From contig NZ_VWPI01000019.1 of assembly GCF_015155755.1 (NCBI RefSeq), positions 1 to 35,254 on the forward strand: a DNA stretch of 35,254 nt, read 5' to 3'. Source of the DNA: Komagataeibacter sp. FXV3 (GTDB lineage: Bacteria > Pseudomonadota > Alphaproteobacteria > Acetobacterales > Acetobacteraceae). The position numbers and the translations under genes are program-made. Below, one piece after another: positions 11,574 to 31,716 of this stretch. Each line of letters begins with the position of its first letter. Position 1 is the first letter of the stretch. The notes beneath the pieces are model-generated. The model made no database searches, was not told the origin of the DNA, and saw only the letters and a list, made by a program, of their open reading frames with translations.

Positions 11574-11613
11574 CCGTAGCAGGGTGTGATTGTGTCATCA
11601 CACCCCGCTACGG
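11574..11613. terminator. Strong hairpin between converging genes (possible bidirectional terminator)
   Basis: A 17-base stem with one A/C mismatch, CCGTAGCAGGGTGTGAT (11574-11590) against ATCACACCCCGCTACGG (11597-11613), has a six-base loop. It lies midway between the stops of the dioxygenase (11501) and the carbamoylase-like gene (11660). No T-run follows on either strand, so a role as transcription stop or mRNA-end protector is likely but not certain. Confidence 0.6.
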
Positions 11614-11659: not shown

Positions 11660-12928
11660 CTATACAGGGTCGAAATGTGCATCGGCTGCCATGACGGCAT
11701 GCAGCAGCACATTGGCCCCGGCCACGATATCCCCCGCTTCCGCATGTTCCGCTTCGTTATGGCTCAGGCCATTACGGCAGGGAATAAAGATCATGGCCGT
11801 AGGGCAGATATGTCCCATGTAAGCGGCATCATGACCCGCGCCCGACACGATATCCCGACAGGTCTGTCCCGTCTGACTGGCTGCCCTGCGAACCAGCTCA
11901 ACACAGGCGGGATCAAAATGCACAGCCGGGGATTTCCATATACGTTTCATTGAAAATGCAATGCCCTGCTGTTCCGCCTGCCGGGCTGCTTCCTTGCGGA
12001 TGCACTCTTCCACGGCGGCAATTACATCATCATCGGGATGGCGCAGGTCCAGCGACATCTGTACTTCACCGGGGACCACATTGGTACTGCCAGGTTGCAC
12101 ATGAATGATGCCTACGGTCGCGCGTGTATCCTCACCATGAGACTGCGCGATTTCATCAATCATTATCATGATATGCGCGGCGGTCAGCAATGCATCCCGA
12201 CGCATGGCGCGCGGTGTCGTGCCGGCATGGGCTTCCTGACCGTTCAGGCGCAGGTCAAACCAGCGCATGGCCTGTACGCCGGTTACCGCGCCAATGGTCG
12301 TGCCTTCCTTTTCCAGAACCGGTCCCTGTTCGATATGCAGTTCAAAATAGGCGCGGACCGGATGCTGACCGCAAGGTTCGTCGCCCCTGTAACCGATTTC
12401 TTCCAGTGCCTGCCCAAAGGATATTCCGTCCACATCCCGTATTTCATAAGCCTGTAATTCAGTAATGGCACCGGCAAATACACCGGATGAAAACATGGCG
12501 GGTGCGAAACGGGATCCTTCCTCATTCGTCCAGTTGACCAGTTCAACAGGGTGCCGCATCCGGTAGCCACTGCGCTGCAGCGCGCGCAGGACCGACAGAC
12601 CGGCCAGGACACCATAGATGCCATCATATTTCCCTCCTGTCGGCTGTGTATCAAGATGACTGCCCATAACCAGCGGCGGCAGTGACGGATCGGAGCCGGG
12701 CAGGCGGATGAACTGGTTGCCCATGGAATCAACCGTCAGCACGCCGCCCAGTGCCGCCGCCTGTGTTCCTAACCAGTCGCGGACCTGACGGTCCTGTAGG
12801 GTAAGGGCCAGTCGGCAGATCCCGCCTTTCGCCGTGCCGCCAAACCTTGCGGTTTCGGCAATATCCGCCAGTAACGATGGGCTATCAACGGCAAGGTTAG
12901 TCCCCGTCCTCAATGTCTTCTGGTCCAT
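11660..12928 (-). CDS. M20 Zn-dependent N-carbamoyl-L-amino acid hydrolase / allantoate amidohydrolase-like enzyme
   Basis: A 422-residue cytosolic enzyme of the hydantoinase/carbamoylase family of M20 amidohydrolases, which release CO2 and ammonia from N-carbamoyl amino acids, ureidopropionate or allantoate. The two-metal site is intact: GSHLDTQPTGGKYDG (H91, D102), the Glu pair in NWTNEEGSRF (E136, E137), HIEQGPVLE (H198) and a late His in GAGHDAAYMG or LSHNEAEH. The dimerisation-domain stretch NGQEAHAGTTPRAMRRDAL is typical. It is the last gene of the six-gene minus operon, 104 bases after the binding-protein gene. In this setting it probably removes a ureido group made by an earlier step, either ring opening by the CE4-type enzymes or deimination by the amidinohydrolase. 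The exact substrate cannot be told. Confidence 0.9.
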   Translation of the reverse strand: MDQKTLRTGTNLAVDSPSLLADIAETARFGGTAKGGICRLALTLQDRQVRDWLGTQAAALGGVLTVDSMGNQFIRLPGSDPSLPPLVMGSHLDTQPTGGKYDGIYGVLAGLSVLRALQRSGYRMRHPVELVNWTNEEGSRFAPAMFSSGVFAGAITELQAYEIRDVDGISFGQALEEIGYRGDEPCGQHPVRAYFELHIEQGPVLEKEGTTIGAVTGVQAMRWFDLRLNGQEAHAGTTPRAMRRDALLTAAHIMIMIDEIAQSHGEDTRATVGIIHVQPGSTNVVPGEVQMSLDLRHPDDDVIAAVEECIRKEAARQAEQQGIAFSMKRIWKSPAVHFDPACVELVRRAASQTGQTCRDIVSGAGHDAAYMGHICPTAMIFIPCRNGLSHNEAEHAEAGDIVAGANVLLHAVMAADAHFDPV

Positions 12929-13033
12929 GTATTTTCCTGTTATTTACTATATTGTTTTCATTGTGCTGCAAACGGTGGCTTCCGTTGCGAAGCATATTAT
13001 TCTGGAACGGTAATATATTTCTGGTCTGTTCTG

Positions 13034-13849
13034 TTATTTATTTATACTGCCCGACAGGTTCCATTTATCCGCCAGGGTCATGAATTCATGATCCTGGCGC
13101 AGGCGGGCAAGGGCTTCCGAAAACAGGGCTTCGTTTTTTACGTCGCCTTTCCTGAAGGCCGCGACGATATTCGTTCGGTTGATGGGGGGAGCAATGGGAT
13201 GGAAATGACCGCCGCCCCTCAACCCGATAATGAACGCGACGACTTCCTGTCCATGCAGCGCGGCGCTTGAACGCCCTTCGCGCAGGTTGCTCAACTGCTG
13301 GCCAAGATCGGAATCCCACATGACCTTTATGGCGGGTTTCCCGGTGGCTTCGCAGTTTGTGGCGCTCCAGCGTGAGACCTGTTCGGCAAAACTGGTGCCC
13401 TGAATGGTGGTGACGGTCTTACCGCACAGATCGGTCAGCGTATGAATGTCGTCATGTTCGGCGGAGGTATAGAATTGCGATCCGGTCGTAAGGTAGGGAA
13501 TGAAATCAAAAAGCGCGTGCCGGGCGGGAATATCGTAAAAACCGCTGATGATCATGTTGGCCCGGCCTGACATCAGGGTCGGGATCAACTGTTCAAAAGT
13601 ACTGTCCACCCATTTGACCGGTCGCGCCGAAACCCGGCCAATCGCCCCGGCCAGATCAATATCAAATCCCTGCAGATGCGTGGTTTCCGGGTCACGGAAC
13701 TCCATTGGCGGGTTGCCGGTGTTGATGGCCACGACAATGGGGGCTTCCACCGTCACGGCCGTCGGGGCAGTCCGGAAACAAAAAATGCTGAGCAGGACAC
13801 AGGCGATCATGGCTGCCGGGATAATGGTCATTATCCATGTCCTGTTCAT
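13034..13849 (-). CDS. Family-3 periplasmic binding protein, lacks the usual amine-binding Asp
   Basis: A 271-residue amino-acid-type binding protein (SBP_bac_3). The N terminus has one hydrophobic segment (IIPAAMIACVLLSIFCF) that may be a signal anchor or a late-cleaved signal peptide. The domain opens with IVVAINTGNPPMEF and GFDIDLAGAIG. Arg110 (IPARHALFDF) matches the conserved Arg that binds the ligand carboxylate. The position equal to the Asp that binds the alpha-ammonium in GlnH or HisJ is Gly200 (LHGQEV against LHDTP in GlnH). Two Cys (142 and 166) match pairs in two paralogues on the plus strand, suggesting a disulphide. It lies 12 bases after the CE4-type hydrolase gene. It has no permease next to it and may share the one at 22070. 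Confidence 0.88.
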   Translation of the reverse strand: MNRTWIMTIIPAAMIACVLLSIFCFRTAPTAVTVEAPIVVAINTGNPPMEFRDPETTHLQGFDIDLAGAIGRVSARPVKWVDSTFEQLIPTLMSGRANMIISGFYDIPARHALFDFIPYLTTGSQFYTSAEHDDIHTLTDLCGKTVTTIQGTSFAEQVSRWSATNCEATGKPAIKVMWDSDLGQQLSNLREGRSSAALHGQEVVAFIIGLRGGGHFHPIAPPINRTNIVAAFRKGDVKNEALFSEALARLRQDHEFMTLADKWNLSGSINK

Positions 13850-13861
13850 GGTCGGGACTTT

Positions 13862-14779
13862 CTAACGCGTCGGAACGGAAAGGGGGGGCACGCCCCCGAT
13901 CCAGCGGGGGATCTGCTCTTCATGCGGTGTCCACGTGCCGCTGGCGATCAACGAAGCGATATGGGCTGCGATATCCTCCATCGGCGCAAACCAGACATCC
14001 CCTTTTTCCTGCATGTATCCGAGCAGTTTCACAATTTCCGCCGCACGCGACAGCCGGCCTGATACGAACGGGTGCCATATTGCAGACCACAGACCGCCAT
14101 ATTGCCAGGCCGCATCGAATTCGGCGCGGAACACGGCCATGGCTTCCGCGGGGGCGCGGATTGTCTGGGCCATTTTGAAGGCCTTGGTATGCACATATTG
14201 TGGCCAGTCATCCAATGCGTGGGTGGAAGGCAGTTCGATCAGCGAACCGGCATTGCCTTTCAGCAGGTAAGGCACGTCGTCGCCATACAGGGAAGCATCG
14301 TACCGGAAGCCATGTTCGACAAGAAGGTCAAGCGTATATTCCGAAAACGCACCCGACGGATTGCGGTATCCCGCTGGTTGGCGCCCGGTCGCTTTCTCGA
14401 TCGCGCGTATGCCTTTTTCAAGGATACGGCGTTCATCATCCGGGGAATGCTGGTTTACGCGTTCATGCAGCCAGCCATGATGGCCGATTTCATGTCCGTT
14501 TTCGACCAGAAGGGATATGGCGTGAGGATATTCTTCCACACACCAGCCCGGCACGTACATTGTCTGCCGGATCCCGAAGTGTTTCCAGATATCGACAATG
14601 CGTGGGACCGCAATCGTGGCCCCAAAGCGCAATTCGGACGCGGCGCTGACATGGCGGCCCGCATCTGCGCCGTAAAACAGGTGCAGCAGGCTCTCGGCAT
14701 CAAAATCAAAGCACATGCACACGGCGCACCGCGCGCCGCCTGGCCACGGGGGAGGGTTACTGATCAACTGAAGCGACAT
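13862..14779 (-). CDS. CE4-type polysaccharide deacetylase-superfamily hydrolase (PuuE / imidase-like)
   Basis: A 305-residue metal-dependent hydrolase of the NodB/CE4 superfamily. The metal site is visible as the Asp of CFDFDAES (D25, D27) and the two His of HEIGHHG (H96, H100). Further family motifs are GYRNPSGAFSEYTLDLL, the IELPST...DDWP stretch and WHPFVSGR. No signal peptide is present, so it acts in the cytosol. This, together with its HpPgdA/PuuE-like layout, favours a small-molecule amidase over cell-wall work: relatives include PuuE allantoinase and cyclic imidases that open five- or six-membered N-rings. A paralogue lies at 23731. GGAG precedes the ATG at 14779. It sits between the aldolase and binding-protein genes in the operon. 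Superfamily sure, reaction inferred. Confidence 0.86.
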   Translation of the reverse strand: MSLQLISNPPPWPGGARCAVCMCFDFDAESLLHLFYGADAGRHVSAASELRFGATIAVPRIVDIWKHFGIRQTMYVPGWCVEEYPHAISLLVENGHEIGHHGWLHERVNQHSPDDERRILEKGIRAIEKATGRQPAGYRNPSGAFSEYTLDLLVEHGFRYDASLYGDDVPYLLKGNAGSLIELPSTHALDDWPQYVHTKAFKMAQTIRAPAEAMAVFRAEFDAAWQYGGLWSAIWHPFVSGRLSRAAEIVKLLGYMQEKGDVWFAPMEDIAAHIASLIASGTWTPHEEQIPRWIGGVPPLSVPTR

Positions 14780-14821
14780 AAGGTTTTTCTCCGGCAGCGG
14801 CCTTCAGCCACGGGATGGTTT

Positions 14822-15589
14822 TCAGGTCATATAATCCGGCTGTTCTTTCTGCATCTTGCGACGCAGGGCGTTCCACAGCATCTCGCCCTTGTCCGGGCCT
14901 GTGGAAAACTGGCTGCGTACATGCGTAAGCATCTGGGGCGACGGAATGGAAAGGGGCTGCCCGCCAGATTGCGCGGCAAGCTGGATACGGCATGCCTGTT
15001 CCAGGTAATACATGTAGTAAAATGCTTCCGCGATGGTTCGCCCTACACTGAGCAACCCATGATTTTTCAGGATCATGACCTTGTGATCCCCCAGGTCGCG
15101 GACAAGCCGCTCCCGTTCGCTCAGGTTGCGGTCTTCCGCGATCCCTTCATATTCATGCACCGCCACCGCATTGTAGAATTCCATGCTGATCTGGTTGATG
15201 GGCAGCAGTCCACCCTGCTGCGCCGCGATCGCCATTCCGGCCAGGGTATGGGTGTGCATGACGCAGGCGGCATCGGGCCGCCTGCCATGCACTGCCGAAT
15301 GGATGACAAAGCCTGCCGGGTTGACCGGCATGGCAGTGGGCTGCGCAGGCAGGCCCTGTGCATCCACCTCGACAAGGGAACTGGCTGTGATTTCCTCGAA
15401 CAGATAGCCGTATGGATTGACCAGAAAGCGGTGCCCCGGCCCGGGCAGGCGGACGGACAGATGCGTATAGACCGTATCTGTCATGTCCAGATGTGCGAAC
15501 AGGCGGTAGGCAAGTGCCAGATCCTCCCGCAGGTGCTGCGTTTCGGTCGCGACATCCTGCGCCGCCGAAGGTATTTCAGCCGTGTTCAT
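14822..15589 (-). CDS. Class II aldolase/adducin family protein
   Basis: A 255-residue zinc protein of the class II aldolase/adducin fold, whose members cleave or epimerise hydroxy-acids and sugar phosphates (fuculose-1-P aldolase, ribulose-5-P 4-epimerase) or decarboxylate. The zinc ligands are HTH in VMHTHTLAGMA and the later His in ILKNHGLLSVG. The substrate-side Asp/Glu stretch (SLVEVDAQG) and the conserved HLSVRLPG and FLVNPYG segments are present. AAAGGAG lies nine bases before the ATG at 15589. It is third in the operon, 24 bases after the AbgB-like gene. A retro-aldol or decarboxylation step on the carbon skeleton, after nitrogen removal or hydroxylation, is the likely job. The true substrate is unknown. 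Confidence 0.88.
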   Translation of the reverse strand: MNTAEIPSAAQDVATETQHLREDLALAYRLFAHLDMTDTVYTHLSVRLPGPGHRFLVNPYGYLFEEITASSLVEVDAQGLPAQPTAMPVNPAGFVIHSAVHGRRPDAACVMHTHTLAGMAIAAQQGGLLPINQISMEFYNAVAVHEYEGIAEDRNLSERERLVRDLGDHKVMILKNHGLLSVGRTIAEAFYYMYYLEQACRIQLAAQSGGQPLSIPSPQMLTHVRSQFSTGPDKGEMLWNALRRKMQKEQPDYMT

Positions 15590-15613
15590 GCGCCTGCACT
15601 CCTTTGTGGTCCA

Positions 15614-17215
15614 TCAGTCGCGCACATTGCCCATGGACCATTCACTGCCGCGTGGCGTTTCCACGTATTCGGGCCAATGATAATCGACCGGCGCCTTGAA
15701 ATCGCTGGGCAGCAGTGGGGCGATCCAGCGCGTTCCCCCCACGCCACCGCCGGTGCGTTCGCGGAATTCGGCCTGTGCGGCTTCCAGGACGGCGGGTTTT
15801 GTCAGCAGGTCAAGCAGGGTAGTGGTGATGACCTGCGATGCCCGGCTCCACATCGGGTCGATGCAGGCAGTGTAACCGGCCATGGCATGGCGCGCCCATG
15901 CAGGGTAGCGGTAACCGGGGGCTTCGGGGTGATGCAGGGTGGGACGGGCGACATACAGCCGGACCGTTGGCGCGTGCCATGTATAATCCACGTAATCATC
16001 CGCCGCGTAATGCTTCTGCCATTGCGGCAGCTGTTCACGGAAGGCGGCTTCGGCTTCCTGCGGGGATGTTAGTTTCATCATGTTGGGCAGCAGCGGTTCC
16101 GCCGTTTCGGGCAGGCCGAGGGTCTTGTGGACTTCCTGGGCGAATCGCACTGCGTCCTCACCCCATTGTGGTGCGCCAAGTCTTTTGAAATTGGCAAAGG
16201 TGGTTTCGGCCATAACATGGTTGGGTAGGCCGGGACGGGTCTTGGTGATCCATTCCTTCTTGACGGTACAATGCGTCATCGCGGCGATGCTGTCGGCATT
16301 ACGATCAAGGATTTCAAAGGCCGAATGGCACATGTCCAGCGAGGGCGCGCGCATGGAATACTGGATCTGCCCGATTCCGGGGGCGAAATTGTCCGCCGTG
16401 GCCTGACCGGCAATCGGGATGAATTCGTTGATGGTCCAGCTACCGGTATGTGGCAGGATGGATTCCTTCATCATCTTGGAATTGGTGTACATCAGGCAGA
16501 CCGCATCGATCGCGCCGGGTGCGCGTGCGATAGCATGTATATGCGTGATTTCACCCGAAGAGATGTTCGCCTGCCATGTCTCGGGATCGGGACATTCAAA
16601 TGTATAGATACGACTCCAGTAAGGTGCGCTTGTTGTCTCCCAGAAACATCCATTCGTCAGCGCGGGAAAGGAATGGGGATGAAAACTGATGGCCGCATCC
16701 AGTCCGGCATAATAGCCGTGGGCGGCGTGCACCGGCTTTGAACCGCACATCTTTTCCGCCGGTTCACCAAAGAAGACGAGCGTGCCGGGAATGGAATGTT
16801 CTTCCATGGCCCGTTTTGTCGCCAGGAAACCGGCCAGTGCGCCGATACCCAGTGCGGAATGCGGGTCGGTATGGCCCGCCGCCAGCCGGCTTGTCCCCTT
16901 GCGCGGCTGCCGATAGGGAACCGCTTCCTGCGACTGTCCGGGTACCGCGTCATATTCCGCGTAGCCTGCCAGTACGGGACCGTCCCCATTGCGCCATTCC
17001 GCACGGAAGGCGGTGGGCATCCCTGCCGTGCCTTCCTCCACAGTGAAACCTTCGCTGCGCAGACGTTCGACATACCAGCGACTGGAGCGGTATTCGCGCC
17101 ATGACGGTTCCTGAAAATCCCAGATCGTCTTGTGATCCTTGGAAAACGCGGCCTGCCGTTCAATCAGCCAGTCGAGCGCCGTACGCTGCGCGTCGGAAAA
17201 TTCATCGTTCCACAT
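15614..17215 (-). CDS. AbgB-like M20 amidohydrolase with altered metal-site residues
   Basis: A 533-residue M20 amidohydrolase most like the AbgB branch (p-aminobenzoyl-glutamate hydrolase subunit B), enzymes that split N-acyl bonds. Visible features are the AGYAEYDAVPGQSQ entry, the AAGHTDPHSALGIGALAG segment with the metal His115, GEPAEKMCGSKP (E154) and SFHPH (H179, H181). Two canonical positions differ. The Cys before the first His is Ala (AAGH instead of ACGH), and the second Glu of the catalytic PAEE is Lys155, with a Cys two residues later (C157). Length is 50 residues over typical AbgB. The ATG at 17215 has GGGGAGCGG upstream; an in-frame ATG at 17236 would overlap the upstream gene's end. 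It lies 13 bases after the deiminase gene. Confidence 0.86.
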   Translation of the reverse strand: MWNDEFSDAQRTALDWLIERQAAFSKDHKTIWDFQEPSWREYRSSRWYVERLRSEGFTVEEGTAGMPTAFRAEWRNGDGPVLAGYAEYDAVPGQSQEAVPYRQPRKGTSRLAAGHTDPHSALGIGALAGFLATKRAMEEHSIPGTLVFFGEPAEKMCGSKPVHAAHGYYAGLDAAISFHPHSFPALTNGCFWETTSAPYWSRIYTFECPDPETWQANISSGEITHIHAIARAPGAIDAVCLMYTNSKMMKESILPHTGSWTINEFIPIAGQATADNFAPGIGQIQYSMRAPSLDMCHSAFEILDRNADSIAAMTHCTVKKEWITKTRPGLPNHVMAETTFANFKRLGAPQWGEDAVRFAQEVHKTLGLPETAEPLLPNMMKLTSPQEAEAAFREQLPQWQKHYAADDYVDYTWHAPTVRLYVARPTLHHPEAPGYRYPAWARHAMAGYTACIDPMWSRASQVITTTLLDLLTKPAVLEAAQAEFRERTGGGVGGTRWIAPLLPSDFKAPVDYHWPEYVETPRGSEWSMGNVRD

Positions 17216-17228
17216 TATTCCGCTCCCC

Positions 17229-18242
17229 TCATACATCGTCGCGGATCAGGGGGCCGGTCGAACAATGCAGGCCGCCACCACCGGAAATCATCTTGTCGTA
17301 CTTGACCGGAATGATATCGACGCCGGCACCCGTCAGCGCCTTGCGTGTTTTTTCGGATATGCCTTCGGGCATCACCACGCGACCGGGCGCAATTGCCAGG
17401 CAGTTGATGATTGAAACATCATCATCGTAACCGACTTCGATGATATGAATGCCTAATTCGCCAAGCTTTTCAATGAACCAGTAGGGTAGGAGGGCAATAT
17501 TGGCGATGGCGAGGTCAGGGGCGAGCATAACAAACACGCCGTCGATATGCAGCCTGTAACCGGTCAGTTGGATGCGCAGCAGTTCAACACCCTGCGTACG
17601 CAGCACTTCCTCGATCTGATCGGCTCCGCTTTCGGTGGTGCGTGAAGAGATCCCGATAACCGCGGTTGTCGGGTTCAGCCATGCAAAACTGCCGCCTTCG
17701 GCAACACCATTGCCTGAAATCGTCCGCAGGATCGGACAGCCCATGCGGGCCAGTGTCTGGGTAACGGGACGTTCTTCCCCCCGGCGGATTTTCGGGCCCA
17801 TACGCGTGACAATGGCACCCCCATTCACCGCAATGACCGAATCACGGGTAAAGCAGGATTTCATACGCCCCGGCGCGATGGAATCGAGATAGACAACTTC
17901 CACGCCTTCCCCGCGCAGGGTGGCGACGTAACCGTCGTGCTGCGCCTGCATGGCCGCAAGGTCGGGGCCAGTGTCGCCACGCCAGTACCAGCCGGCTTCA
18001 ACATCACCAAAAGCGTTGTTTTCCATCCGCTTGGATGTATCAACAATGTTAACTTCATCACCCGGCCGGTGCATCATGACCATACGCAGGCGCCCGACGT
18101 CGTTATTACATCCCCATTTCCGGCCCCATACGGCTTCCTGCTGCGCCGTGTCCTCGAACGCGGGTTCCGCTTCCGAGGGGAACAGCTTGATCAGCTGATT
18201 GTAACGCCATTCGCCTTCTGTAATCGCATTCATATCGCGCAT
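17229..18242 (-). CDS. Amidinohydrolase/deiminase-fold enzyme (DDAH / arginine deiminase / amidinotransferase superfamily)
   Basis: A 337-residue protein of the guanidino-group modifying superfamily (PF02274 type). The catalytic triad is readable: Cys327 in GGLHCSTGPL, His232 in YRLHIDGVFVML and the acidic partner in the CFTRDSVI (D134) and VAEGGSF (E182) segments. Known members attack the guanidinium carbon of arginine, methylarginine or agmatine, giving a ureido product, or transfer the amidino group. It is the first gene of the minus operon, next to the divergent control region, so it may carry out a key step. The start at 18242 is just after AGGTC; the ATG at 18233 has better spacing and is a real alternative. 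The superfamily call is firm; the guanidino substrate is inferred from the family. Confidence 0.88.
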   Translation of the reverse strand: MRDMNAITEGEWRYNQLIKLFPSEAEPAFEDTAQQEAVWGRKWGCNNDVGRLRMVMMHRPGDEVNIVDTSKRMENNAFGDVEAGWYWRGDTGPDLAAMQAQHDGYVATLRGEGVEVVYLDSIAPGRMKSCFTRDSVIAVNGGAIVTRMGPKIRRGEERPVTQTLARMGCPILRTISGNGVAEGGSFAWLNPTTAVIGISSRTTESGADQIEEVLRTQGVELLRIQLTGYRLHIDGVFVMLAPDLAIANIALLPYWFIEKLGELGIHIIEVGYDDDVSIINCLAIAPGRVVMPEGISEKTRKALTGAGVDIIPVKYDKMISGGGGLHCSTGPLIRDDV

Positions 18243-18861
18243 GACCTATTTTATATTATTGAATGTAAGTAATTAATCCCGGCTGCAGCAAAATCATGAT
18301 GGCTGCGTCGGTCATGGGATCATCTTATAGCGCCTTTGGGCCGACGCAAGAAAAACTTGGAGTTGACACCAAAAAGTCTGGACAGAACCGATTCATTGCG
18401 TTTACGTTTCTAATCATCCGGTATGGCAAGAGTGACCGGCAAACAGGGATATTAAAAAGTTCTGTGTTATTTCATGCAGGAACTCTATCCTGCGGTCAGC
18501 GGCAGTTCGTCTGCGGTGGAGCAGATCATCAGGCAGTCTGCGTTTCACAGATCGTCTGGCAGTGTTTAATTGTTTTTCAAAAGAAATGAATGGGAGGGGA
18601 TGGCCATCACGGCCGGGTGAACGTGCCATCAATTTCGTTTCGATATAGTTTCAATATCCAGATGCGCCAGGGGTATGGGAAATTCAGATTACGGACCAAT
18701 CTTTCAGACCCGATCAGGTTACGGCAGGGACCCGGGATGCTTCCCGTCTTTGCCGTCGGTCGCGCACGGTCTGTCATGTCCGGGTGCGTAAGCGGGTCAG
18801 AAGCAGAAATAAAAAGTAATGACTTCCAATAATCCTACGATCATATGTCAGGAGGCACGTA
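18243..18861. promoter_or_regulatory. Divergent control region of the catabolic island
   Basis: About 620 bases separate the divergent minus operon (start 18242) and plus operon (start 18862), so both promoters must lie here. No gene is supported. The 40 bases next to 18242 are AT-rich and could hold the leftward promoter. A TTGACA at 18363-18368 reads rightwards, but no good -10 box follows at the usual distance. AGGAGG just before 18862 is the receptor's ribosome binding site. No Fur box was seen, unlike at the iron genes. The TetR gene closing the plus operon is a candidate regulator, but I could not find a clear palindromic operator. Confidence 0.5.
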
Positions 18862-21216
18862 ATGAGACGTAGTCGATGTCTCGGGGTTTTTCTTGTCTGT
18901 TGCGTTCCATACGTTGATTCCGCAAAGGCGGCAGTCGAAAGTTCCGGATCCGCAACTGATTCAAAACAGCGGCATGGCGTTTCGGCCTCGTCCAGGACTG
19001 GTGCGCATACCGCGCGCCAGAGGGCAGCAGGCCCGGTGCAGGCGCATGAACCGGAACAGTTGCGTGTCATGTCCACCGCCCGTACCCAGTCACATGGGAC
19101 GAGCGAGGTGGTCAGTCGCGCCATGATGGACAAATTCGTGCCCGGCACCAGCGCGGTCAAGATGCTGGCCCAGTTGCCAGGCGTGCAGTTCACCTCATCG
19201 GATGCGCTGGGTGTGGATACGTGGTCTTCCACGCTGTACGCCCGCGGCTTCGTGCAGGACCAGATGGGCTTCACCCTTGATGGGGTTCCGCTGGGGGATC
19301 AGGGATATTTCACTTATAACGGCCTGAAATCCCAGGCCGCGATCGCACCGGAAAATATTGCGAGCATGGACATCTCGCAGGGTGCGGGTGCCGTGGATGC
19401 GCCGGGAACAACCAACCTGGGCGGCCAGATATCCATGGTTTCATCCAACCCTTTGCAGAAGGCCGGGGCACGTGTGTCGCAGTCCTTCGGGAGTTGGGAC
19501 GCGTACCATACGTTTGTCCGTGTTGACAGCGGTAACCTGAACAAATCGGGCACCCGGTTTTATGTTTCCTATGTTCGTAACGACACGAACAAGTGGAAAG
19601 GTGCGGGGTACCAGTTTGAACAGAACGTCAATGCCAAGCTTGTACAGCCCCTGAAGAACAACAGTGAACTGTCATTCTTCTTTGACTGGAACAATCTTGT
19701 GCAGCCAGTCGACTATCAGGATCTCAGCTTCAATTTCCTGAAGGTGTACGGTACCCGGCTGGACAATTATTATCCCAATTATACCAATGCCTACAACGCG
19801 GCAGCCGGGAAATACACGCTGGGCCAGGACAAGACGAACGACCCCAAGGACGTTGCGTATTATGACGTGGGGCGTGTCTGGAATGACTATCTGGCGTACA
19901 CGAAACTCAAGCTGAACATGACGAACAACCTGTCATGGGACACGACGCTGTATGGCCATGGCCAGAAGGCAATGGGGGTATTCACCAACCCGTTCCATGC
20001 ATCGCCCAATGGGGCGCCACTGTCTGAACAGATCAAGCGTCCGTGGCTCATGCGTTTCGGTTTCACGTCGGGCATGAACTGGCACATGGGGCACAATGTG
20101 CTGCGGGCCGGGATCTGGTATGAATACTACCGCAATGCCATAAGCCAGACACTGTACGAGGCCCCGCTGCTGGGGCAGGGCGTGCCTGATCCCAATCATC
20201 TGGGCCGCGAATTCGATCGCATGTGGGCCTTTGATTTCAATACCAATACTTTCATGGGGTATGTGGAAGACCAGTATTATATCAAACCAAACCTGGTTGC
20301 CTCCGTAGGCTTCAAGGCCATGACATCCACGACACGTGGGTCACAGGTGGCGAACAATACGGGTGAGGCAGCACTGGCACAGGGCAGCCTTAATGCATCC
20401 GACGGGTTCCTGCCGCATTTCAATGTCGATTATCATATCGACCGGCATAGCGAACTCTATTTCGATATCGCCAAGAACCTGCGTACCTATGCCGATGGTG
20501 GTTACGGCCTGGGCAGTGTCTGGGGTGTAACAAACCTGCAGACGTTCAACCAGATGAAGAAAGTCATCAAGCCGGAAACCGACTGGACCTACATGGCCGG
20601 TTATCGTTACCAGGCGAAGATGCTGTCCGCATCTGTCAGTTTCTACCACACTGATTTCTTCAACCGCCTGCAGACGATTGCATCAGGCAATATTGTCAAC
20701 CCGACTGATTCTGTCGCGAACGTTGGTAGTGTCCACATGAACGGCGTGGACGTGGGGGCGACCATACGCCCGGTCAAGGGGCTGAGTTTCTATAACAGCT
20801 TCAGCTATAACCATGGCTGGTATGGATCGGACGTGTCCGATGGCGGCACGACCTATCACACCAAGGGGAAGAAGATCGTCAATTATCCTTCCTTCATGTA
20901 TAAAACACAGCTTTCCTATGCCTATCGTGGGGCGGAAGTACATTTTGATGCATCCTACATGTCCAGCCGCCCGTTTGACTACATGAACACGCTGCATGTT
21001 CCGTCCTACTGGCTGGCATCCATGGGGGCACGCTACAACTTCAGCCGCGTCGGTCCGCTCAGCACGTTATCCGTTGGTTTCAACGTTTATAACCTGTTTA
21101 ATTCCACCTATATCGGAACAATGGGGGATAACGGAAATCCGATGCAGGGTGATTACCAGTCCTTCAGTATCGGGGCGCCGCGTTCCTTCTTCGGTACCAT
21201 TTCTGCTTCCTACTAG
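18862..21216 (+). CDS. TonB-dependent outer-membrane receptor
   Basis: A 784-residue outer-membrane receptor. A signal peptide (CLGVFLVCCVPYVDSAKA) is followed by a long polar linker, a TonB-box-like segment EQLRVMSTAR near residues 65-75, the plug domain (KMLAQLPGVQF, LYARGFVQDQMGFTLDGVPL, NIASMDISQGAGAVDAPG, LGGQISMVSSNP) and a 22-strand-type barrel with alternating aromatic residues ending in GTISASY. It takes a scarce or large ligand across the outer membrane using TonB energy. It opens a tightly spaced operon with an amino-acid-type ABC importer, only 13 bases before the binding protein, which argues for a small nitrogenous ligand and not a classical ferric siderophore. No Fur box is seen upstream. 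AGGAGG lies just before the ATG. Confidence 0.93.
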   Translation: MRRSRCLGVFLVCCVPYVDSAKAAVESSGSATDSKQRHGVSASSRTGAHTARQRAAGPVQAHEPEQLRVMSTARTQSHGTSEVVSRAMMDKFVPGTSAVKMLAQLPGVQFTSSDALGVDTWSSTLYARGFVQDQMGFTLDGVPLGDQGYFTYNGLKSQAAIAPENIASMDISQGAGAVDAPGTTNLGGQISMVSSNPLQKAGARVSQSFGSWDAYHTFVRVDSGNLNKSGTRFYVSYVRNDTNKWKGAGYQFEQNVNAKLVQPLKNNSELSFFFDWNNLVQPVDYQDLSFNFLKVYGTRLDNYYPNYTNAYNAAAGKYTLGQDKTNDPKDVAYYDVGRVWNDYLAYTKLKLNMTNNLSWDTTLYGHGQKAMGVFTNPFHASPNGAPLSEQIKRPWLMRFGFTSGMNWHMGHNVLRAGIWYEYYRNAISQTLYEAPLLGQGVPDPNHLGREFDRMWAFDFNTNTFMGYVEDQYYIKPNLVASVGFKAMTSTTRGSQVANNTGEAALAQGSLNASDGFLPHFNVDYHIDRHSELYFDIAKNLRTYADGGYGLGSVWGVTNLQTFNQMKKVIKPETDWTYMAGYRYQAKMLSASVSFYHTDFFNRLQTIASGNIVNPTDSVANVGSVHMNGVDVGATIRPVKGLSFYNSFSYNHGWYGSDVSDGGTTYHTKGKKIVNYPSFMYKTQLSYAYRGAEVHFDASYMSSRPFDYMNTLHVPSYWLASMGARYNFSRVGPLSTLSVGFNVYNLFNSTYIGTMGDNGNPMQGDYQSFSIGAPRSFFGTISASY

Positions 21217-21229
21217 GACAGGAGTATAA

Positions 21230-22054
21230 ATGCGCTTACATCGTCGCCAGTCCCGATCCGCATGGACCGCCGTCAGGTCCGTTCTTGCCACAGGGTGCGC
21301 CATGCTTTTCCTGTCGGGCAACACCGCCGGATACGGGGCGGCGGCGGTGCCGCTGGTCGTGGGGATCAATCCCGTTTACCCGCCCATGGAATTCCATGCT
21401 CCTGAAACGGGTGAACTTCAGGGTTTTGATGTCGATTTCGCCTATGCACTGGGAAAACAGATGGGACGCCCGGTGGAAATACGTGAGGCGTCCTTTCCCC
21501 AGTTGATGGTTGATGTCGGTTCGGGACGGATCGACATCATCATCAGTGGTCTGAATGATACGCCGGGGCGTCGGGGTGTGCTTCAGTTTGTTGATTATTT
21601 ACAGTCCGGTGCCCAGTTGCTGGTGTCGGGCAACAGTCCGTTCACGCGGGATACCGATCTGTGTGGGGGGACGGTATCGGCAGCGCGCGGTACTGATTTC
21701 GCCAGGATCCTGCAGGCATGGGGCGCACGCGTCTGTGGCGCAGCCCACATGCCCGACATTACGGTGGTGGGGACCGAGAACTCCGCCATGGCGCGTCTGG
21801 AACTGCGTGAGGGCAGGGTGCAGGCCGCCGTTCAGGGGGAAGAAACGGTGGGATACTTCCTTGATAACGCCCATTCCCTGTTCCGGCGGTTTCTATCCCC
21901 CATCAGCCATGCCTATCTTGCGATCGCCATGCGGCATGACAGCGCATTATTTGACGATATCAGCACTGATTTCGAACAGTTGAAAAAAAATGGGAAATAC
22001 CAGAGTCTTCTTCGCAAGTGGCACCTGGAAGCCAATACGGTCATCCCCTCCTAG
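21230..22054 (+). CDS. Family-3 periplasmic binding protein of the island's ABC importer
   Basis: A 274-residue SBP_bac_3 protein with a basic N terminus and signal-like hydrophobic core (SVLATGCAMLFLSG). The domain has LVVGINPVYPPMEF, GELQGFDVDFAYALG and Arg114/115 (TPGRRGVLQF) for the ligand carboxylate. As in its paralogue at 13034, the alpha-ammonium-binding Asp is replaced by Gly203 (VQGEET), hinting at a ligand without a free alpha-amino group. Cys145 and Cys169 form the same 24-residue-spaced pair as in the other two. AGGACAGGAG precedes the ATG. It is directly followed, after 15 bases, by the permease gene and is the most likely cognate binding protein. Confidence 0.91.
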   Translation: MRLHRRQSRSAWTAVRSVLATGCAMLFLSGNTAGYGAAAVPLVVGINPVYPPMEFHAPETGELQGFDVDFAYALGKQMGRPVEIREASFPQLMVDVGSGRIDIIISGLNDTPGRRGVLQFVDYLQSGAQLLVSGNSPFTRDTDLCGGTVSAARGTDFARILQAWGARVCGAAHMPDITVVGTENSAMARLELREGRVQAAVQGEETVGYFLDNAHSLFRRFLSPISHAYLAIAMRHDSALFDDISTDFEQLKKNGKYQSLLRKWHLEANTVIPS

Positions 22055-22069
22055 CCGCACAGGTGAAAT

Positions 22070-22900
22070 ATGTCTGCTGAAATGCAACTCGACGATCATA
22101 GCACAATCATAGAACGTGGCCGTTACCGCATGGTCATGTCGCTGGTGGTCGTGCTTGCGTTCGTGGCGTGGCTGGTTCATGCCTTTGCCGTTTCCGATAT
22201 CGAGTGGAAGTACGTCAGCCATTTTCTAATGGTCCGCACCATAATGCAGGGTGTGGCCGCAACGTTGTTCATGGCCGTATCGGCCATGCTGCTGGGTGTC
22301 GTGATCGGCCTGATCTTCGCCATCGTGCAGCAGTCCGGCAATCCGGTCTGGAAAACGGTCGCGGCCGGGTATGTCTGGCTGTTCCGCGGGACGCCGGTCA
22401 TTCTGCAGCTACTGTTATGGTTCAACCTGGCGCTGGTGTTTCCGCATATATGGGTGCCCGGTTACGGATCGGTACAGACGGTGCAGCTTATGACCCCGTT
22501 TCTGTCCGCATTGCTTGGGCTGGGGCTTAACCAGGGGGCCTACATAACGGAAATCATGCGCTCCGGCCTGACCAGTGTAGACAAGGGGCAGTATGAAGCC
22601 TGCTGCATGATTGGCATGACACGCCTGCAGGCGCTGCGCCGGGTCATCCTGCCGCAGGCGCTGCGGGTGGTCATTCCACCGTTGGGTAACGAGTTCATCA
22701 GCATGATCAAGCTGACATCGCTTTCCAGCATGATCCAGTATCCCGAAATCCTGCATAGTGCGCAGAACATCTATTACGCCAATGCCCGGGTGATCGAACT
22801 GCTGCTTGTGACCGGGTTCTGGTATCTTGCGATTGTTACGGTGCTGATGCCAGTGCAGTATTTCCTTGAAAAACGTATCAACAGGGGATGGTCGGGATGA
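22070..22900 (+). CDS. Amino-acid-type ABC transporter permease (HisM/GlnP family)
   Basis: A 276-residue inner-membrane permease of the polar amino acid uptake family. Hydrophobic segments begin at [20 protein letters not shown], with further helices around [40 protein letters not shown], and near the C terminus. The cytoplasmic EAA loop that docks on the ATPase is clear: [18 protein letters not shown] followed by LGMT-like [20 protein letters not shown]. It is a single permease and so probably forms a homodimer. It lies between the binding-protein and ATPase genes, overlapping the latter in an ATGA. The ligand class is inferred from the family. Confidence 0.92.
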
Positions 22901-23709
22901 CCGCCACAGATATTGCAGCCACGACTGCGCCGCCTATCCTTGAAGTCCGGAACATGCGCAAGGCATATGGGAACATGCCTATCCTGAAGGGGGTGTCATG
23001 CACCCTGAACCAGGGGGATGTGATGTGCGTGCTGGGGGGATCGGGGTCTGGCAAGACCACGCTCCTGCGCTGCATCGCGCAGCTTGAACGGTATCAGGGC
23101 GGTAGCGTGGTGGTTGATGGCGAACTGATGGGAATTGCCGAAAAGGGTGGGCGTTTTTACCGCCTGTCGGAACGTCAGATCGCGCGCCAGCGCCTGAAGA
23201 CCGGCATGGTCTTTCAGAAATTCAATCTGTTTTCGCATATGACGGCCATGCAGAACGTGATGGAGGGGCCGGTCCATGTCCTGTCCGTCCCGCCTGAGGA
23301 AGCGCGCAGTGAAGCCTGTCGCCTGCTGGAATGGGTGGGACTGGGGGAGCGAATGGACCATTACCCGGCCCAGCTGTCCGGTGGCCAGCAGCAGCGTGTC
23401 GCCATTGCACGGGCATTGGCCATGAAGCCCAAGGTCATGCTGTTTGATGAACCGACCAGCGCGCTTGACCCCGAATCCGTGGGCCGCGTGTTGGCCGTCA
23501 TGAAACAGGTTGCCGCAACGGGCATGAGCATGATCGTCGTGACCCATGAAATGGGCTTTGCGCGTGAGGTCGCAAGCCGGGTCCTGTTCATGGATCATGG
23601 GGTGATCGCGGAAGATGCCCCATCCGCACAGTTCTTTTCCGCGCCATCGCACCCACGGGCGGCTGATTTCTTGGCTTCCACGCTGGGCGCACGCGTACAG
23701 ACCAACTGA
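22897..23709 (+). CDS. Amino-acid-type ABC transporter ATPase (HisP/GlnQ family)
   Basis: A 270-residue ATPase of the polar amino acid importer family. Walker A is GGSGSGKT (47-54), the Q-loop in [10 protein letters not shown], the signature LSGGQQQR (160-167), Walker B MLFDEP (181-186) and the switch His in VVTHEMGFA. The start at 22897 gives the ATGA overlap with the permease stop and has GGGG nine bases upstream; an ATG at 22888 is an alternative. It is the only amino-acid-type ATPase in the window. It may therefore also serve the ATPase-less permease fusion at 30112 and the extra binding proteins. Confidence 0.93.
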
Positions 23710-23730
23710 AATTACAGGAATTCATACACT

Positions 23731-24624
23731 ATGTCCGCAACATATGACCGCTATCGTAATGTACCGTTGACCGCCCCCAATCAGGCGCCGCCCGCCCTGC
23801 GTTACCCCTGGCCCGAAGGAAACCGGGCCGCCATGTTCCTGTCGTTCGACATTGATGCGGAAAGTGCCTGGACCGGCAAGGATCCGTCCCATGCCGAACG
23901 GCTTGTTACCATGTCCTTTGGCGGGTTCGAGGCGCGGGTGGGGACGCCGGTCATCCTCAGACTTCTGCGTGAAATGGGGCTGAAGGCCACGTTCTTCATT
24001 ACCGGTTGGGCAGTTGAAGCCCATCCTGCCATGGCCGAAGCGGTACTGGCCGATGGCCATGAAATCGGGCATCACGGCTATCATCATCTTATCCCCGAAC
24101 CCGGTGCCGATCATATGCTGGAGGAACTGGATTACGGGCTGGAAGTGCTCAAAAGGCGGTTGGGCGTCGTACCCGTGGGCTACCGTGCGCCGATCGGGGA
24201 AGCGTCGGCTGAACTGTGCAAAAGTCTGAAGGAGCGCAACTTCCTCTATACCAGTTCCTGGTTTGATGATGTCCGCCCGTACCGGCACGTGATGAAGGAT
24301 GGATCGCCAGGCCTGATCGAACTGCCCCAGACCACCAGTTACGATGACTGGATGCACGGGCTTGCGAACCGCTTCAGTCCGCGTTCGATTTTCCCCAAGG
24401 AGCATGTGCTGTCGATGTGGCGCGATGACCTTGATGAGACCCGTGCATGGGGCGATCTGGTAACAACCGTGTTCCACCCACAGGTAAGCGGCCGGCCAAT
24501 GCGTTTCCGGCTGTTGCGCGAATTCCTGCAGTACACCGTCAGTTGCAACGATGTATGGATTACGACAGGGGAGGAAATCGCGCGGTATTACGAGCAGCAG
24601 GAAAAAGCCCTTGCGGTATCGTGA
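23731..24624 (+). CDS. CE4-type polysaccharide deacetylase-superfamily hydrolase, second copy
   Basis: A 297-residue paralogue of the enzyme at 13862, sharing the layout FLSFDIDAES (D40, D42), GHEIGHHGYHH (H110, H114), VGYRAPIGEAS, IELPQTTSYDDW and VFHPQVSGRP. No signal peptide is present, so the site of action is the cytosol. Relatives of this shape include PuuE allantoinase and cyclic imidases as well as HpPgdA. Sequence divergence from the first copy, mainly in the loop after DAES and in the C-terminal half, suggests a different substrate or a different form of it. It follows the ATPase after 21 bases and overlaps the third binding-protein gene by 14 bases, so import and hydrolysis are co-expressed. 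Confidence 0.87.
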   Translation: MSATYDRYRNVPLTAPNQAPPALRYPWPEGNRAAMFLSFDIDAESAWTGKDPSHAERLVTMSFGGFEARVGTPVILRLLREMGLKATFFITGWAVEAHPAMAEAVLADGHEIGHHGYHHLIPEPGADHMLEELDYGLEVLKRRLGVVPVGYRAPIGEASAELCKSLKERNFLYTSSWFDDVRPYRHVMKDGSPGLIELPQTTSYDDWMHGLANRFSPRSIFPKEHVLSMWRDDLDETRAWGDLVTTVFHPQVSGRPMRFRLLREFLQYTVSCNDVWITTGEEIARYYEQQEKALAVS

Positions 24625-25444
24625 CCGGAGCCGCAGGCTGATTGGGACCCTTCTGCCTGTTCTGTTGGGGCTGCTTTGGCCGTTCATGGCCAATGCGGCT
24701 CCGCGGCAGGTGATCATTGGGGTCTATCCCAGCTATCCGCCGCTTGACATGCGTGACCCGGAGACAGGGCAGTTGGAAGGCTTTGACATTGACCTTGCCA
24801 CCGCCCTGGCCCGGCAGAATGGATGGGCGCTGACCTTTCGCGAAATCAGCTTTGAAGAACTGTTGCCCGCGGTCCAGACCGGACGTGTGGACCTGTTTTT
24901 TAACGGCATGATCGACAATGCAGTGCGGCGGGAGTCAGTGGATTTTGTAGATTACCTGCAGGAAGGGTCGCGTTTTCTTGTGCCAACGCGCGATCTGGCG
25001 TCTTTCCGGACCCAGCGTGACCTGTGCGGCAAATACGTGGCCGCCAACCGGACCACCAGCCAGCCCGCGCAGATCCAGAAATGGAGCACGGAAAATTGCG
25101 GGGGAAACGAAATCCGGTTCTATCCTGCGGAAAATGACTCCGACGCCATGATCCAGCTTTATGAAGGGCGGGTGCAGGCGATGATGGTTGACAGCATTGT
25201 CACCCAGTATGTGATCCGAAGGGAAAAAGGTAAGATCACGGCGATGGAGGGACTGATTTTCCCACAGGAATTCGGGATTGGCGTCCATAAGGGGCGCACG
25301 GAACTGGCGGAACAGATCCGCAGCGGCCTGCGTGAACTCGTTCTGAATGGAAATTACAAAGAACTTCTTGATAAATGGGGTTTATCGCAGGAAAATGGTC
25401 TTGACGATGAATTACGGCAGTCGCCTGTATCTGTCAGTCCGTGA
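24611..25444 (+). CDS. Family-3 periplasmic binding protein, third copy, TTG start
   Basis: A 277-residue SBP_bac_3 protein. The best start is TTG at 24611: AGGA lies eight bases upstream and the protein then begins MRYRDRSRRLIGTLLP, a textbook signal peptide with cleavage near ANA-A. An in-frame ATG at 24551 would add 20 charged residues before it. The gene overlaps the CE4-type gene by 14 bases, which suggests translational coupling. The domain shows VIIGVYPSYPPLDM, QLEGFDIDLATALA and Arg106/107 for the ligand carboxylate. Unlike its two paralogues it keeps the amine-binding Asp (D194 in MMVDSI). The Cys pair is at 139 and 163. It may bring a second, true amino-acid-like ligand to the same permease. 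Confidence 0.88.
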   Translation: MRYRDRSRRLIGTLLPVLLGLLWPFMANAAPRQVIIGVYPSYPPLDMRDPETGQLEGFDIDLATALARQNGWALTFREISFEELLPAVQTGRVDLFFNGMIDNAVRRESVDFVDYLQEGSRFLVPTRDLASFRTQRDLCGKYVAANRTTSQPAQIQKWSTENCGGNEIRFYPAENDSDAMIQLYEGRVQAMMVDSIVTQYVIRREKGKITAMEGLIFPQEFGIGVHKGRTELAEQIRSGLRELVLNGNYKELLDKWGLSQENGLDDELRQSPVSVSP

Positions 25445-25486
25445 CGGACACGCGCGTACGGCCTGCTATCAGATGGACCTGCCGGT

Positions 25487-26122
25487 TTGACCACGCCACC
25501 CCGCTCATCAAGAAATCATAAAGAGTCCGAAGTTCTGGATGCCGCTGAACTGCTGTTCCAGAAACAGGGATATGAATCAACCAAGATCGAAGCCATTGCC
25601 GTGGAAGCGTCGGTTGCTTCGGCTACGGTCTATAACTACTTTGAAACAAAGAATAATATTTTTCTAAGTATTATCCTGCGCCATCTGGAGGCAGCCTTGC
25701 CTGAACGCCGTCGGTTCATGCGCGCGCTGCCAGATGACCCGGTGGCCGGTATCATCGCGTTCGAAAACATGCTGGCGGAGCAGGCGCTCCGCTTTCTGGG
25801 GCGGGATTCATGGAAAATCATCCTGACCGCCAAGCTGCTTGATGACCAGTCCGCCGCTTACCGCACGGCGCGGCGTCTGGATACCCTGATCTACAAGCAA
25901 TATATCCGCATACTGACCCGTTATCGTAACATGGGCCGCATCAGGGATGATGTTGATATTGCCCTGTTGGCTTCCCTGTTGATCGATGTCGGGAATGCCA
26001 TTCTGGCGCGGATCGTGGTTTCTGCCCATACGGTGGCGGAAGGCATGAAGCTGTGGGGCGATCCAAGCGTGCGCATGGTCCTGCGTGGCCTGATCGTTGA
26101 ACCGGAAGATACCGCCGCCTAG
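25487..26122 (+). CDS. TetR/AcrR family transcriptional regulator
   Basis: A 211-residue regulator. The N-terminal helix-turn-helix domain is typical: VLDAAELLFQKQGYESTKIE, then IAVEASVASATVYNYFETKN, followed by a mainly helical ligand-binding domain. A TTG start at 25487 is used because no ATG or GTG lies between it and the upstream in-frame stop; the ribosome binding site is weak. It lies 42 bases after the third binding protein and ends the seven-gene plus operon, so it probably senses the imported compound or a product and controls the divergent promoters. This regulatory role is inferred from position. Confidence 0.9.
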   Translation: MTTPPRSSRNHKESEVLDAAELLFQKQGYESTKIEAIAVEASVASATVYNYFETKNNIFLSIILRHLEAALPERRRFMRALPDDPVAGIIAFENMLAEQALRFLGRDSWKIILTAKLLDDQSAAYRTARRLDTLIYKQYIRILTRYRNMGRIRDDVDIALLASLLIDVGNAILARIVVSAHTVAEGMKLWGDPSVRMVLRGLIVEPEDTAA

Positions 26123-31665: not shown

Positions 31666-31716
31666 GATGATGCAGCTTCGGCCGGGACGGACAGGTGGGT
31701 AGGAGGCATGGATGTG

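What the first reader, a model, noticed from the sequence alone, without database searches (positions are those of the whole stretch)
11660..26122. TonB- and ABC-coupled island for an unknown nitrogen-rich small molecule
Thirteen genes leave one 620-base control region: six leftwards (guanidino-modifying enzyme, AbgB-like and carbamoylase-like M20 hydrolases, class II aldolase, CE4-type hydrolase, binding protein) and seven rightwards (TonB receptor, binding protein, permease, ATPase, CE4-type hydrolase, binding protein, TetR). Gaps are 4-base overlaps to 104 bases, so these look like two real operons. Seen: gene order, families, spacing. Inferred: one pathway that captures a compound at the outer membrane, imports it and strips its C-N bonds. 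I know of no described system with this set.
Basis: partly seen in the sequence, partly recalled or inferred. Interest (0 to 1): 0.8.

Follow-up and report, generated by a model that had tools for sequence, protein, structure and literature searches.

The report
Mobile island for guanidino nitrogen compounds
A block of 13 genes, found complete in three acetic acid bacteria and once on a plasmid, looks like equipment for importing an arginine-like nitrogen compound and cutting it up; the exact compound is not known.

Summary
In detail: thirteen intact genes leave a 619-base divergent gap in two runs, all under purifying selection. The whole island was found in three genomes: this Komagataeibacter, K. 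diospyri, and a transposase-flanked Kozakia baliensis plasmid. Elsewhere the set splits. One module is an arginine-deiminase-like hydrolase with the AbgB-like M20 enzyme beside it (11 of 36 loci) and a class II aldolase nearby (17 of 36). The other is permease, ATPase and CE4-type hydrolase (16 of 23 loci), among hydantoin-type genes. Sister systems on Sinorhizobium and Shinella plasmids hold eight of the 13 families; they lack the deiminase-like gene but have an aminotransferase and a 5-guanidino-2-oxopentanoate-decarboxylase-family enzyme. A chromosomal Komagataeibacter locus repeats the theme. Best reading: an inducible catabolic island for an arginine-like guanidino acid or a cyclic or acylated derivative: guanidino to ureido to amine, then carbon-chain cleavage. 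Catalytic residues, gene order and conservation are shown; substrate, reaction order, receptor role and regulation are inferred. My library searches listed no description of this set.

The parts
17229..18242 (-). Arginine-deiminase/DDAH-superfamily hydrolase (ADI-like), first gene of the left operon
   Evidence: PF02274 70.8 bits; ADI-type residues D134, E182, H232, D234 in 39 of 39 rows and C327 in 38 of 38 rows that reach it
15614..17236 (-). M20-family amidohydrolase, weakly AbgB-like
   Evidence: TIGR01891 100.1 bits, below cut-off; directly beside the ADI-like gene in 11 of 36 other loci
14822..15589 (-). class II aldolase/adducin-family enzyme
   Evidence: NF005451 332.6 bits, above cut-off 207
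13862..14779 (-). CE4-type hydrolase (PDAa)
   Evidence: PF01522 70.8 bits; best-matching solved chain 3rxz, 208 bits
13034..13849 (-). family 3 solute-binding protein (SBPa)
   Evidence: PF00497 85.5 bits
11660..12928 (-). M20C hydantoinase/carbamoylase-family amidase (M20carb)
   Evidence: TIGR01879 414.5 bits, above cut-off 204; NF006769 557.6, above 452
18243..18861 (.). divergent control region
   Evidence: aligned with the Kozakia and K. diospyri copies; no Rfam match
18862..21216 (+). TonB-dependent receptor
   Evidence: PF00593 95.9 bits, PF07715 41.3 bits
21230..22054 (+). family 3 solute-binding protein (SBPb)
   Evidence: PF00497 97.6 bits
22070..22900 (+). amino-acid-type ABC permease
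   Evidence: TIGR01726 59.7 bits, above cut-off 42.2
22888..23709 (+). ABC ATPase, closest to amino-acid-type models
   Evidence: PF00005 118.4 bits; GlnQ model 294.8 bits, below its cut-off 379
23731..24624 (+). CE4-type hydrolase (PDAb)
   Evidence: PF01522 64.4 bits; relatives sit in hydantoin-type operons
24551..25444 (+). family 3 solute-binding protein (SBPc); start codon uncertain
   Evidence: PF00497 103.7 bits
25487..26122 (+). TetR-family regulator
   Evidence: PF00440 48.7 bits; 52% relative in the Sinorhizobium and Shinella sister systems
11574..11613 (.). inverted repeat, 17-base arms, 6-base loop; probable bidirectional terminator (inferred)
30112..32697 (-). flanking SBP-permease fusion (30112-31665) and LysR gene (31717-32697), paralogous to the chromosomal deiminase-like locus; may belong to the same physiology
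   Evidence: 74% and 63% identity to L127

Best explanation
A horizontally moved, probably inducible catabolic island for an arginine-like guanidino carboxylic acid, or a cyclic or acylated derivative, used as a nitrogen and carbon source. Inferred flow: the TonB receptor takes the compound through the outer membrane; three binding proteins feed one permease/ATPase pair; the CE4-type hydrolases open a lactam or cyclic ureide form and the M20 AbgB-like enzyme removes an amide-linked group; the ADI-like enzyme hydrolyses the guanidino group to a ureido group and ammonia; the M20C carbamoylase splits the ureido group to amine, ammonia and CO2; the class II aldolase cleaves or decarboxylates the remaining chain; TetR represses both operons until an inducer binds. 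Shown: gene order, families, intact ADI-type catalytic residues, presence as a unit in three genomes, purifying selection, pairing of relatives with guanidine-processing enzyme families. Inferred: substrate, reaction order, regulation, direction of transfer.
For: ADI-type catalytic residues conserved in 39 rows, in register with DDAH and ADI chains. Pairing with guanidine chemistry: the M20 AbgB-like gene adjoins the ADI-like gene in 11 of 36 other loci and a DDAH-family gene in 3 of 6 plasmid records opened; two more of the six, S. meliloti Rm41 and Shinella, are sister systems with an AruI-family decarboxylase (728.4 bits against cut-off 500 for the Shinella protein, 73% identical in Rm41) and an aminotransferase; an agmatinase-family gene (representative below the curated cut-offs) lies in 4 of 38 loci, three of them from one genus. 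The set recurs on the chromosome: of 7 loci opened, 5 have LysR, SBP-permease and ATPase beside a deiminase-like gene, 4 a class II aldolase, 3 an intact M20C and 1 M20C pieces. The permease/ATPase/PDAb module occurs in hydantoin-type operons. Selection on all 13 genes.
Against: No enzyme activity, transcript or growth data. The ADI-like protein misses every curated ADI and DDAH cut-off reported, so carrying substrate over from those families is unsafe; R201, opposite a carboxylate-binding arginine by recall, is kept in 35 of 39 only. In most ADI-like loci the transporter is a different ABC type (two permeases; 22 of 38), so substrates may differ. In 19 of 36 loci no class II aldolase and in 25 of 36 no M20 AbgB-like gene was found (some contigs are short). 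The AbgB-like family also lives without ADI: 160 of 299 family genomes have a match at E 1e-20, and five loci opened from its second clade held no other island gene. PDAa- and AruI-type relatives occur in other settings too. Receptor and regulator roles rest on position. No operator was found. The metal ligands of the AbgB-like enzyme may be altered (alignment, motif knowledge recalled), so even its chemistry is unsure.
Confidence: 0.45

Rival explanations
1. Island for a cyclic ureide or imide (hydantoin-like ring), in which the ADI-like enzyme hydrolyses an amidine or imino carbon of the ring rather than a free guanidino group.
For: PDAb relatives live with carbamoylase-like nitrilase, TRZ/ATZ-family and Asp/Glu racemase genes and, in some, a dihydroorotase-family gene; a 2-nitroimidazole nitrohydrolase is a distant relative of the ADI-like enzyme (31.2 bits); in Haloferax a NodB-like deacetylase, PotABD, AmaB2 and DpyS genes are up on alanine versus ammonium (PMC6801745, passages; homology of that deacetylase to PDAa or PDAb was not tested).
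Against: No hydantoinase or racemase among the 13 genes; AruI- and DDAH-family partners of the M20 enzyme point to open guanidino acids.
Confidence: 0.2
2. Uptake and destruction of a guanidine-containing natural toxin or antimetabolite (self-protection or competition) rather than nutrition.
For: Plasmid location with transposases in Kozakia, TonB receptor, TetR regulator, many hydrolases.
Against: Importing a toxin first is costly; three binding proteins and an aldolase fit nutrition better; sister systems add an aminotransferase and a decarboxylase. These are arguments, not tests.
Confidence: 0.15
3. Two functionally separate operons that merely travel together: an ADI-like catabolic operon and a hydantoin-type transport operon.
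For: The modules occur separately: ADI, aldolase and AbgB-like M20 in 0 of 23 PDAb loci; PDAb in 0 of 36 other ADI loci.
Against: Shared divergent control region, one permease/ATPase pair for the island, and sister systems in which PDAa, binding protein, permease and ATPase share a locus with the M20 enzyme, TetR and aldolase; one ADI locus (L049) also has aldolase, PDAa, SBPa, permease and ATPase together.
Confidence: 0.15

Closest known systems
Sinorhizobium meliloti Rm41 pSymA and Shinella sp. PSBB067 plasmid clusters (no characterisation found; L117, L118)
   Same: PDAa 62%, M20 AbgB-like 70/69%, TetR 52%, permease 52%, ATPase 53%, aldolase 47/49%, binding protein 35/36%, an M20C amidase at 32%
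   Different: AruI-family decarboxylase, aminotransferase and DMT transporter; no ADI-like gene or TonB receptor found in the 21.6 kb by tblastn, no close PDAb
Arginine catabolism in S. meliloti, including satABC (PMC7268258, passages read)
   Same: ABC transporter of the same type: a three-gene set in the S. meliloti 1021 stretch L123 has permease 45% and ATPase 53% identity; that it is satABC is inferred from gene order, the record carries no annotation
   Different: Arginase, deiminase, transaminase and decarboxylase enzymes; 'deacetylase', 'aldolase' and 'amidohydrolase' do not occur in the main text
Haloferax volcanii nitrogen-regulated region HVO_A0293-A0306 (PMC6801745, passages read)
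   Same: NodB-like deacetylase, hydantoinase/carbamoylase-family amidase and ABC transporter genes induced together
   Different: spermidine/putrescine-type transporter, dihydropyrimidinase and aminotransferase; no ADI-like gene named in the passages seen
Chromosomal Komagataeibacter deiminase-like locus (L127 and relatives)
   Same: ADI/DDAH-like, M20C, class II aldolase, ABC transporter; a TonB receptor in 2 of 7 loci
   Different: ADI-like protein only about 29-32% identical to the window's; no CE4-type or AbgB-like gene found there by tblastn

Membership tests
Arginine deiminase (ArcA) | curated score of TIGR01078 (489.1 bits) | tested here: not met
   79.4 bits
Arginine deiminase / DDAH superfamily | Asp, Glu, His, Asp and Cys catalytic set | tested here: met
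   D134, E182, H232, D234 in 39 of 39 rows; C327 in 38 of 38 rows that reach it; roles of residues recalled
Dimethylargininase (DDAH) | curated scores of NF045658 and NF045660 (450 and 340 bits) | tested here: not met
   63.0 and 63.7 bits
Hydantoinase/carbamoylase-family amidase (M20C) | curated score of TIGR01879 (204 bits) | tested here: met
   414.5 bits
Allantoate deiminase AllC | curated score of TIGR03176 (597.75 bits) | tested here: not met
   250.1 bits
PuuE allantoinase | curated score of TIGR03212 (424.6 bits) | tested here: not met
   96.2 bits for PDAa; PDAb itself not scanned, its relative L106 66.5 bits
AbgB/M20D amidohydrolase | curated score of TIGR01891 (153.75 bits) | tested here: not met
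   100.1 bits
Class II aldolase PRK07044 subfamily | curated score of NF005451 (207 bits) | tested here: met
   332.6 bits
Hydantoin utilisation operon | hydantoinase, racemase and carbamoylase together | tested here: not met
   carbamoylase family present, no hydantoinase or racemase among the 13
Arginine transaminase pathway (AruH/AruI) | aminotransferase and 5-guanidino-2-oxopentanoate decarboxylase genes | tested here: not met
   neither family among the 13 genes; both types present in the sister system L118
Ergothioneine utilisation (ErtE) | curated score of NF058540 (520 bits) | tested here: not met
   360.1 bits
Ectoine transport (Ehu) | curated scores of EhuA/EhuC/EhuD | tested here: not met
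   290.1 against 345.4; 128.3 against 196.95; 116.6 against 205.2
Guanidino-acid catabolic system | enzyme activity on a guanidino acid | not testable with these tools
   needs assay

The most novel reading that the evidence does not exclude
A TonB-coupled catabolic pathway for cyclised or N-substituted guanidino acids, for example glycated-arginine hydroimidazolones or other ring forms: CE4-type enzymes open the ring, the ADI-like enzyme releases the substituted nitrogen, the carbamoylase and class II aldolase finish the job. It would be a new nutrient route, spread by plasmids in sugar-rich fermentations. The named substrate is speculation from enzyme logic, not from a test.
Probability: 0.12. 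Interest if true: 0.8.

Novelty: new variant of a known kind. Interest (0 to 1): 0.5.

Why it matters
It ties five protein groups without an assigned function (an ADI-like clade, an M20 AbgB-like clade, two CE4-type clades and a class II aldolase) to a recurring guanidino or ureido context in acetic acid bacteria, rhizobia and other Alphaproteobacteria, and gives a compact, plasmid-borne set for finding their common substrate. If the substrate is found, many 'polysaccharide deacetylase' and 'amidohydrolase' annotations in such clusters would need correction.

Tried and rejected
Guanidine riboswitch or other known RNA in the control region: no Rfam match at gathering threshold in the window nor at E up to 5 in 18200-18900. 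Promoter and terminator scan of 18100-18950: one hit each, about the number in shuffles (1.1 and 0.9). Allantoin, ergothioneine and ectoine pathways: curated cut-offs not met. AlphaFold2 models of the ADI-like and AbgB-like proteins were too poor to use (mean pLDDT 49.6 and 39.4), so no fold search was made. TonB receptor as a substrate clue: 61 of 299 family genomes, own included, hold a match at E 1e-90, up to 50% identity outside the window itself, with at most three candidates scored per genome, so it is uninformative. Calling the Rm41 cluster satABC was rejected: the S. meliloti 1021 set is another copy (28% binding protein). An empty-site comparison in the genomes that lack the island was not done.

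Literature: ten searches. Five returned no paper. Searches listed 3, 2, 5 (of 6) and 1 papers; (K. diospyri genomes) listed 8. Of all these I read passages of three only: PMC6015842 (nothing relevant), PMC6801745 and PMC7268258; the others were seen as listings. Supplements were not read, and most subscription papers are not in the library. So 'no description' means none listed by these term sets.

Choices and dropped rows. The 36 ADI loci are the 17 other family genomes at 50% identity or more, 14 loci of the 12 other class genomes (G556 and G674 give two each), three plasmid records (H2, H4, H6; H3 and H5, also above 50%, were not opened) and two named loci. The 23 PDAb loci are 19 of the 57 matching family genomes (L108 dropped as the same record as L094) and 4 of 498 plasmid records, taken from the top. 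Thresholds: 45% identity, 60% of the query. Island copies (L031, L055, L090, L091) were kept out of both counts. Several contigs are short (L035, L039, L086), so absences are lower bounds; loci share ancestry, so counts are not independent events. The home-made gene caller missed some genes; it underlies, while one search uses tblastn. Two AruI-family relatives opened (Rhizobium jaguaris, Caballeronia) and one PDAa relative (Aminobacter) showed no ADI-, AbgB-like or aldolase gene in their annotation or, for the last two, by tblastn of the AbgB-like and aldolase proteins.


Full report
What is there. The thirteen genes exist as described. The divergent gap is 619 bases. An inverted repeat with 17-base arms lies between the end of the left operon and the convergent PhyH gene, so the left operon probably ends there (inferred).

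Real and mobile. The window is one whole contig (C101) of a 3.6 Mb genome of 208 contigs. Its genus is Komagataeibacter by inference: a same-genus genome, G679, has a 34,504-base contig, the length of the named K. diospyri record NZ_BDLU01000012. The same 13 genes in the same order occur in K. diospyri and on plasmid pKB16680_2 of Kozakia baliensis, with two IS110 transposase genes and a DDE-type gene on one side and an IS5 transposase gene across the record start. All 13 genes show dN/dS of 0.02 to 0.14. Island DNA identity is 88.0% window to K. diospyri, 87.8% window to Kozakia and 91.3% K. diospyri to Kozakia: the plasmid copy is nearer to one Komagataeibacter copy than the two Komagataeibacter copies are to each other, which suggests transfer between genera. 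I had no core-gene yardstick for Kozakia. The ADI-like gene, own genome included, is present in 2 of 19 genomes of the genus, at 50% identity or more in 18 of 299 genomes of the family, and at E 1e-60 in 13 of 385 genomes of the class sample.

The key enzyme. The ADI-like protein is remote from solved DDAH and arginine deiminase chains (52 bits at best), but the alignments place FTRD, RRGE, EGG, SRT, LHID and the C-terminal Cys in register with one or both. Across 39 rows (36 other loci and three island copies) D134, R153, E182, H232 and D234 are invariant, Cys327 is in the 38 rows that reach it and R201 in 35 of 39. It fails the curated ADI and DDAH cut-offs. So: a working guanidine- or amidine-hydrolysing enzyme is likely; the substrate is open.

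Two modules. In 36 other loci that hold the ADI-like gene, the class II aldolase is present in 17 (centres at most 6.7 kb away), the AbgB-like gene in 11 (each time next to the ADI-like gene, centres 1.30 to 1.38 kb apart), PDAa in 2, the permease and ATPase in 1, PDAb in 0. In 23 loci with PDAb, permease and ATPase are present in 16 each; ADI, aldolase, AbgB-like M20 and PDAa in 0. Most ADI-like loci have another ABC transporter with two permeases (22 of 38, window and K. diospyri included in the 38), whose binding protein resembles PotD only faintly (23.3 bits). PDAb loci carry carbamoylase-like nitrilase, TRZ/ATZ-type amidohydrolase, Asp/Glu racemase and, in some, dihydroorotase-family genes. 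The island thus looks like a merger of an ADI-type module and a hydantoin-type transport module, plus a TonB receptor from a family-wide expansion and an M20C carbamoylase. Intermediate states exist: L049 has ADI-like, aldolase, PDAa, SBPa, permease and ATPase; L057 has ADI-like, aldolase, TetR and PDAa.

Sister systems. The AbgB-like enzyme led to S. meliloti Rm41 pSymA (L117) and a Shinella plasmid (L118), where homologues of eight of the 13 families sit together: PDAa, binding protein, permease, ATPase, TetR, AbgB-like M20, aldolase and, at 32%, an M20C amidase. No ADI-like gene was found there; an AruI-family (5-guanidino-2-oxopentanoate decarboxylase) enzyme and an aminotransferase are present, the latter scoring 241 bits on the guanitoxin GntC model, below its cut-off of 415. 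In Phyllobacterium, Pararhizobium and Roseovarius the AbgB-like gene lies beside a DDAH-family gene; Pararhizobium also has an AruI-family gene. An Arthrobacter relative has no DDAH- or ADI-family gene annotated nearby, but a ThDP enzyme just under the AruI cut-off (454 against 500). I opened 6 of the 15 listed among 234 records with an AbgB-like match, so these partners are examples, not rates. The AbgB-like family is wide (matches at E 1e-20 in 160 of 299 family genomes), and five loci opened from its second clade had none of the other island genes.

The theme repeats on the chromosome. In this genome contig C23 (L127) carries another ADI/DDAH-like gene (29% to the window's), M20C (54%), class II aldolase (67%), LysR (63%), SBP-permease (74%) and ATPase (42%). 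Of seven such loci opened (six of the genus, one of the family), five have LysR, SBP-permease and ATPase beside the ADI-like gene, four the aldolase, three an intact M20C and one M20C fragments, two a TonB receptor; two (L132, L133) show only the ADI-like gene. The window's own right flank, SBP-permease fusion and LysR, is a paralogue of this locus.

Mechanism. Deimination followed by decarbamoylation, guanidino to ureido to amine, is the simplest logic that links an ADI-like enzyme with a carbamoylase; CE4-type and AbgB-like enzymes would prepare ring or acyl forms and the aldolase would cut the chain. This is inference from families and recurrence. Indirect physiological parallels: higher transcripts of a NodB-like deacetylase, a carbamoylase-family amidase and an ABC transporter on alanine than on ammonium in Haloferax (PMC6801745, passages), and a same-type ABC transporter, satABC, named a symbiotic arginine transporter, whose deletion lowered nitrogenase activity (PMC7268258, passages); that L123 25147-27781 is satABC is inferred from gene order.

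Verdict. A real, mobile and selected gene set with a better-supported guanidino/ureido context than before, substrate unknown. A new variant of the known kind of ABC-coupled amino-acid-derivative catabolic island, with an added TonB receptor.

Noticed in passing
G000:C23 (L127 2864-12774): Chromosomal locus with ADI/DDAH-like enzyme, M20C carbamoylase, class II aldolase, a protein that looks like a 2OG-dioxygenase by eye (no NCBIfam match), LysR, SBP-permease fusion and ATPase.
   Followed up: partly
window 27171-29663: Second TonB receptor beside the island; related receptors (53%) sit in the chromosomal deiminase-like locus of two other genomes.
   Followed up: partly
window 10578-11501: PhyH-family dioxygenase convergent with the left operon, kept in K. 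diospyri at 84%; the related arrangement L049 also has a PhyH gene next to its ADI-like gene, though not a close homologue.
   Followed up: partly
L049 9702-10232, L035 390-923, L057 18379-19431, L118 11626-12081: Small recurring protein beside aldolase, ADI-like or AbgB-like genes; no Pfam match for L049 and L035, no NCBIfam match for L057 and L118. That the L118 protein is related was judged by eye.
   Followed up: no
window 15614-17236: The AbgB-like family shows GHTDPHSALG and GEPAEKMCGSKP where canonical M20D metal motifs are expected (recalled); possibly altered metal site, conserved at 90% or more in 14 rows.
   Followed up: no
L126 (Aminobacter niigataensis plasmid p1): PDAa-like protein (49%) in a cluster with HpaB-like monooxygenase, flavin reductases, ArgE/DapE-family deacylase and amino-acid ABC transporter.
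   Followed up: no
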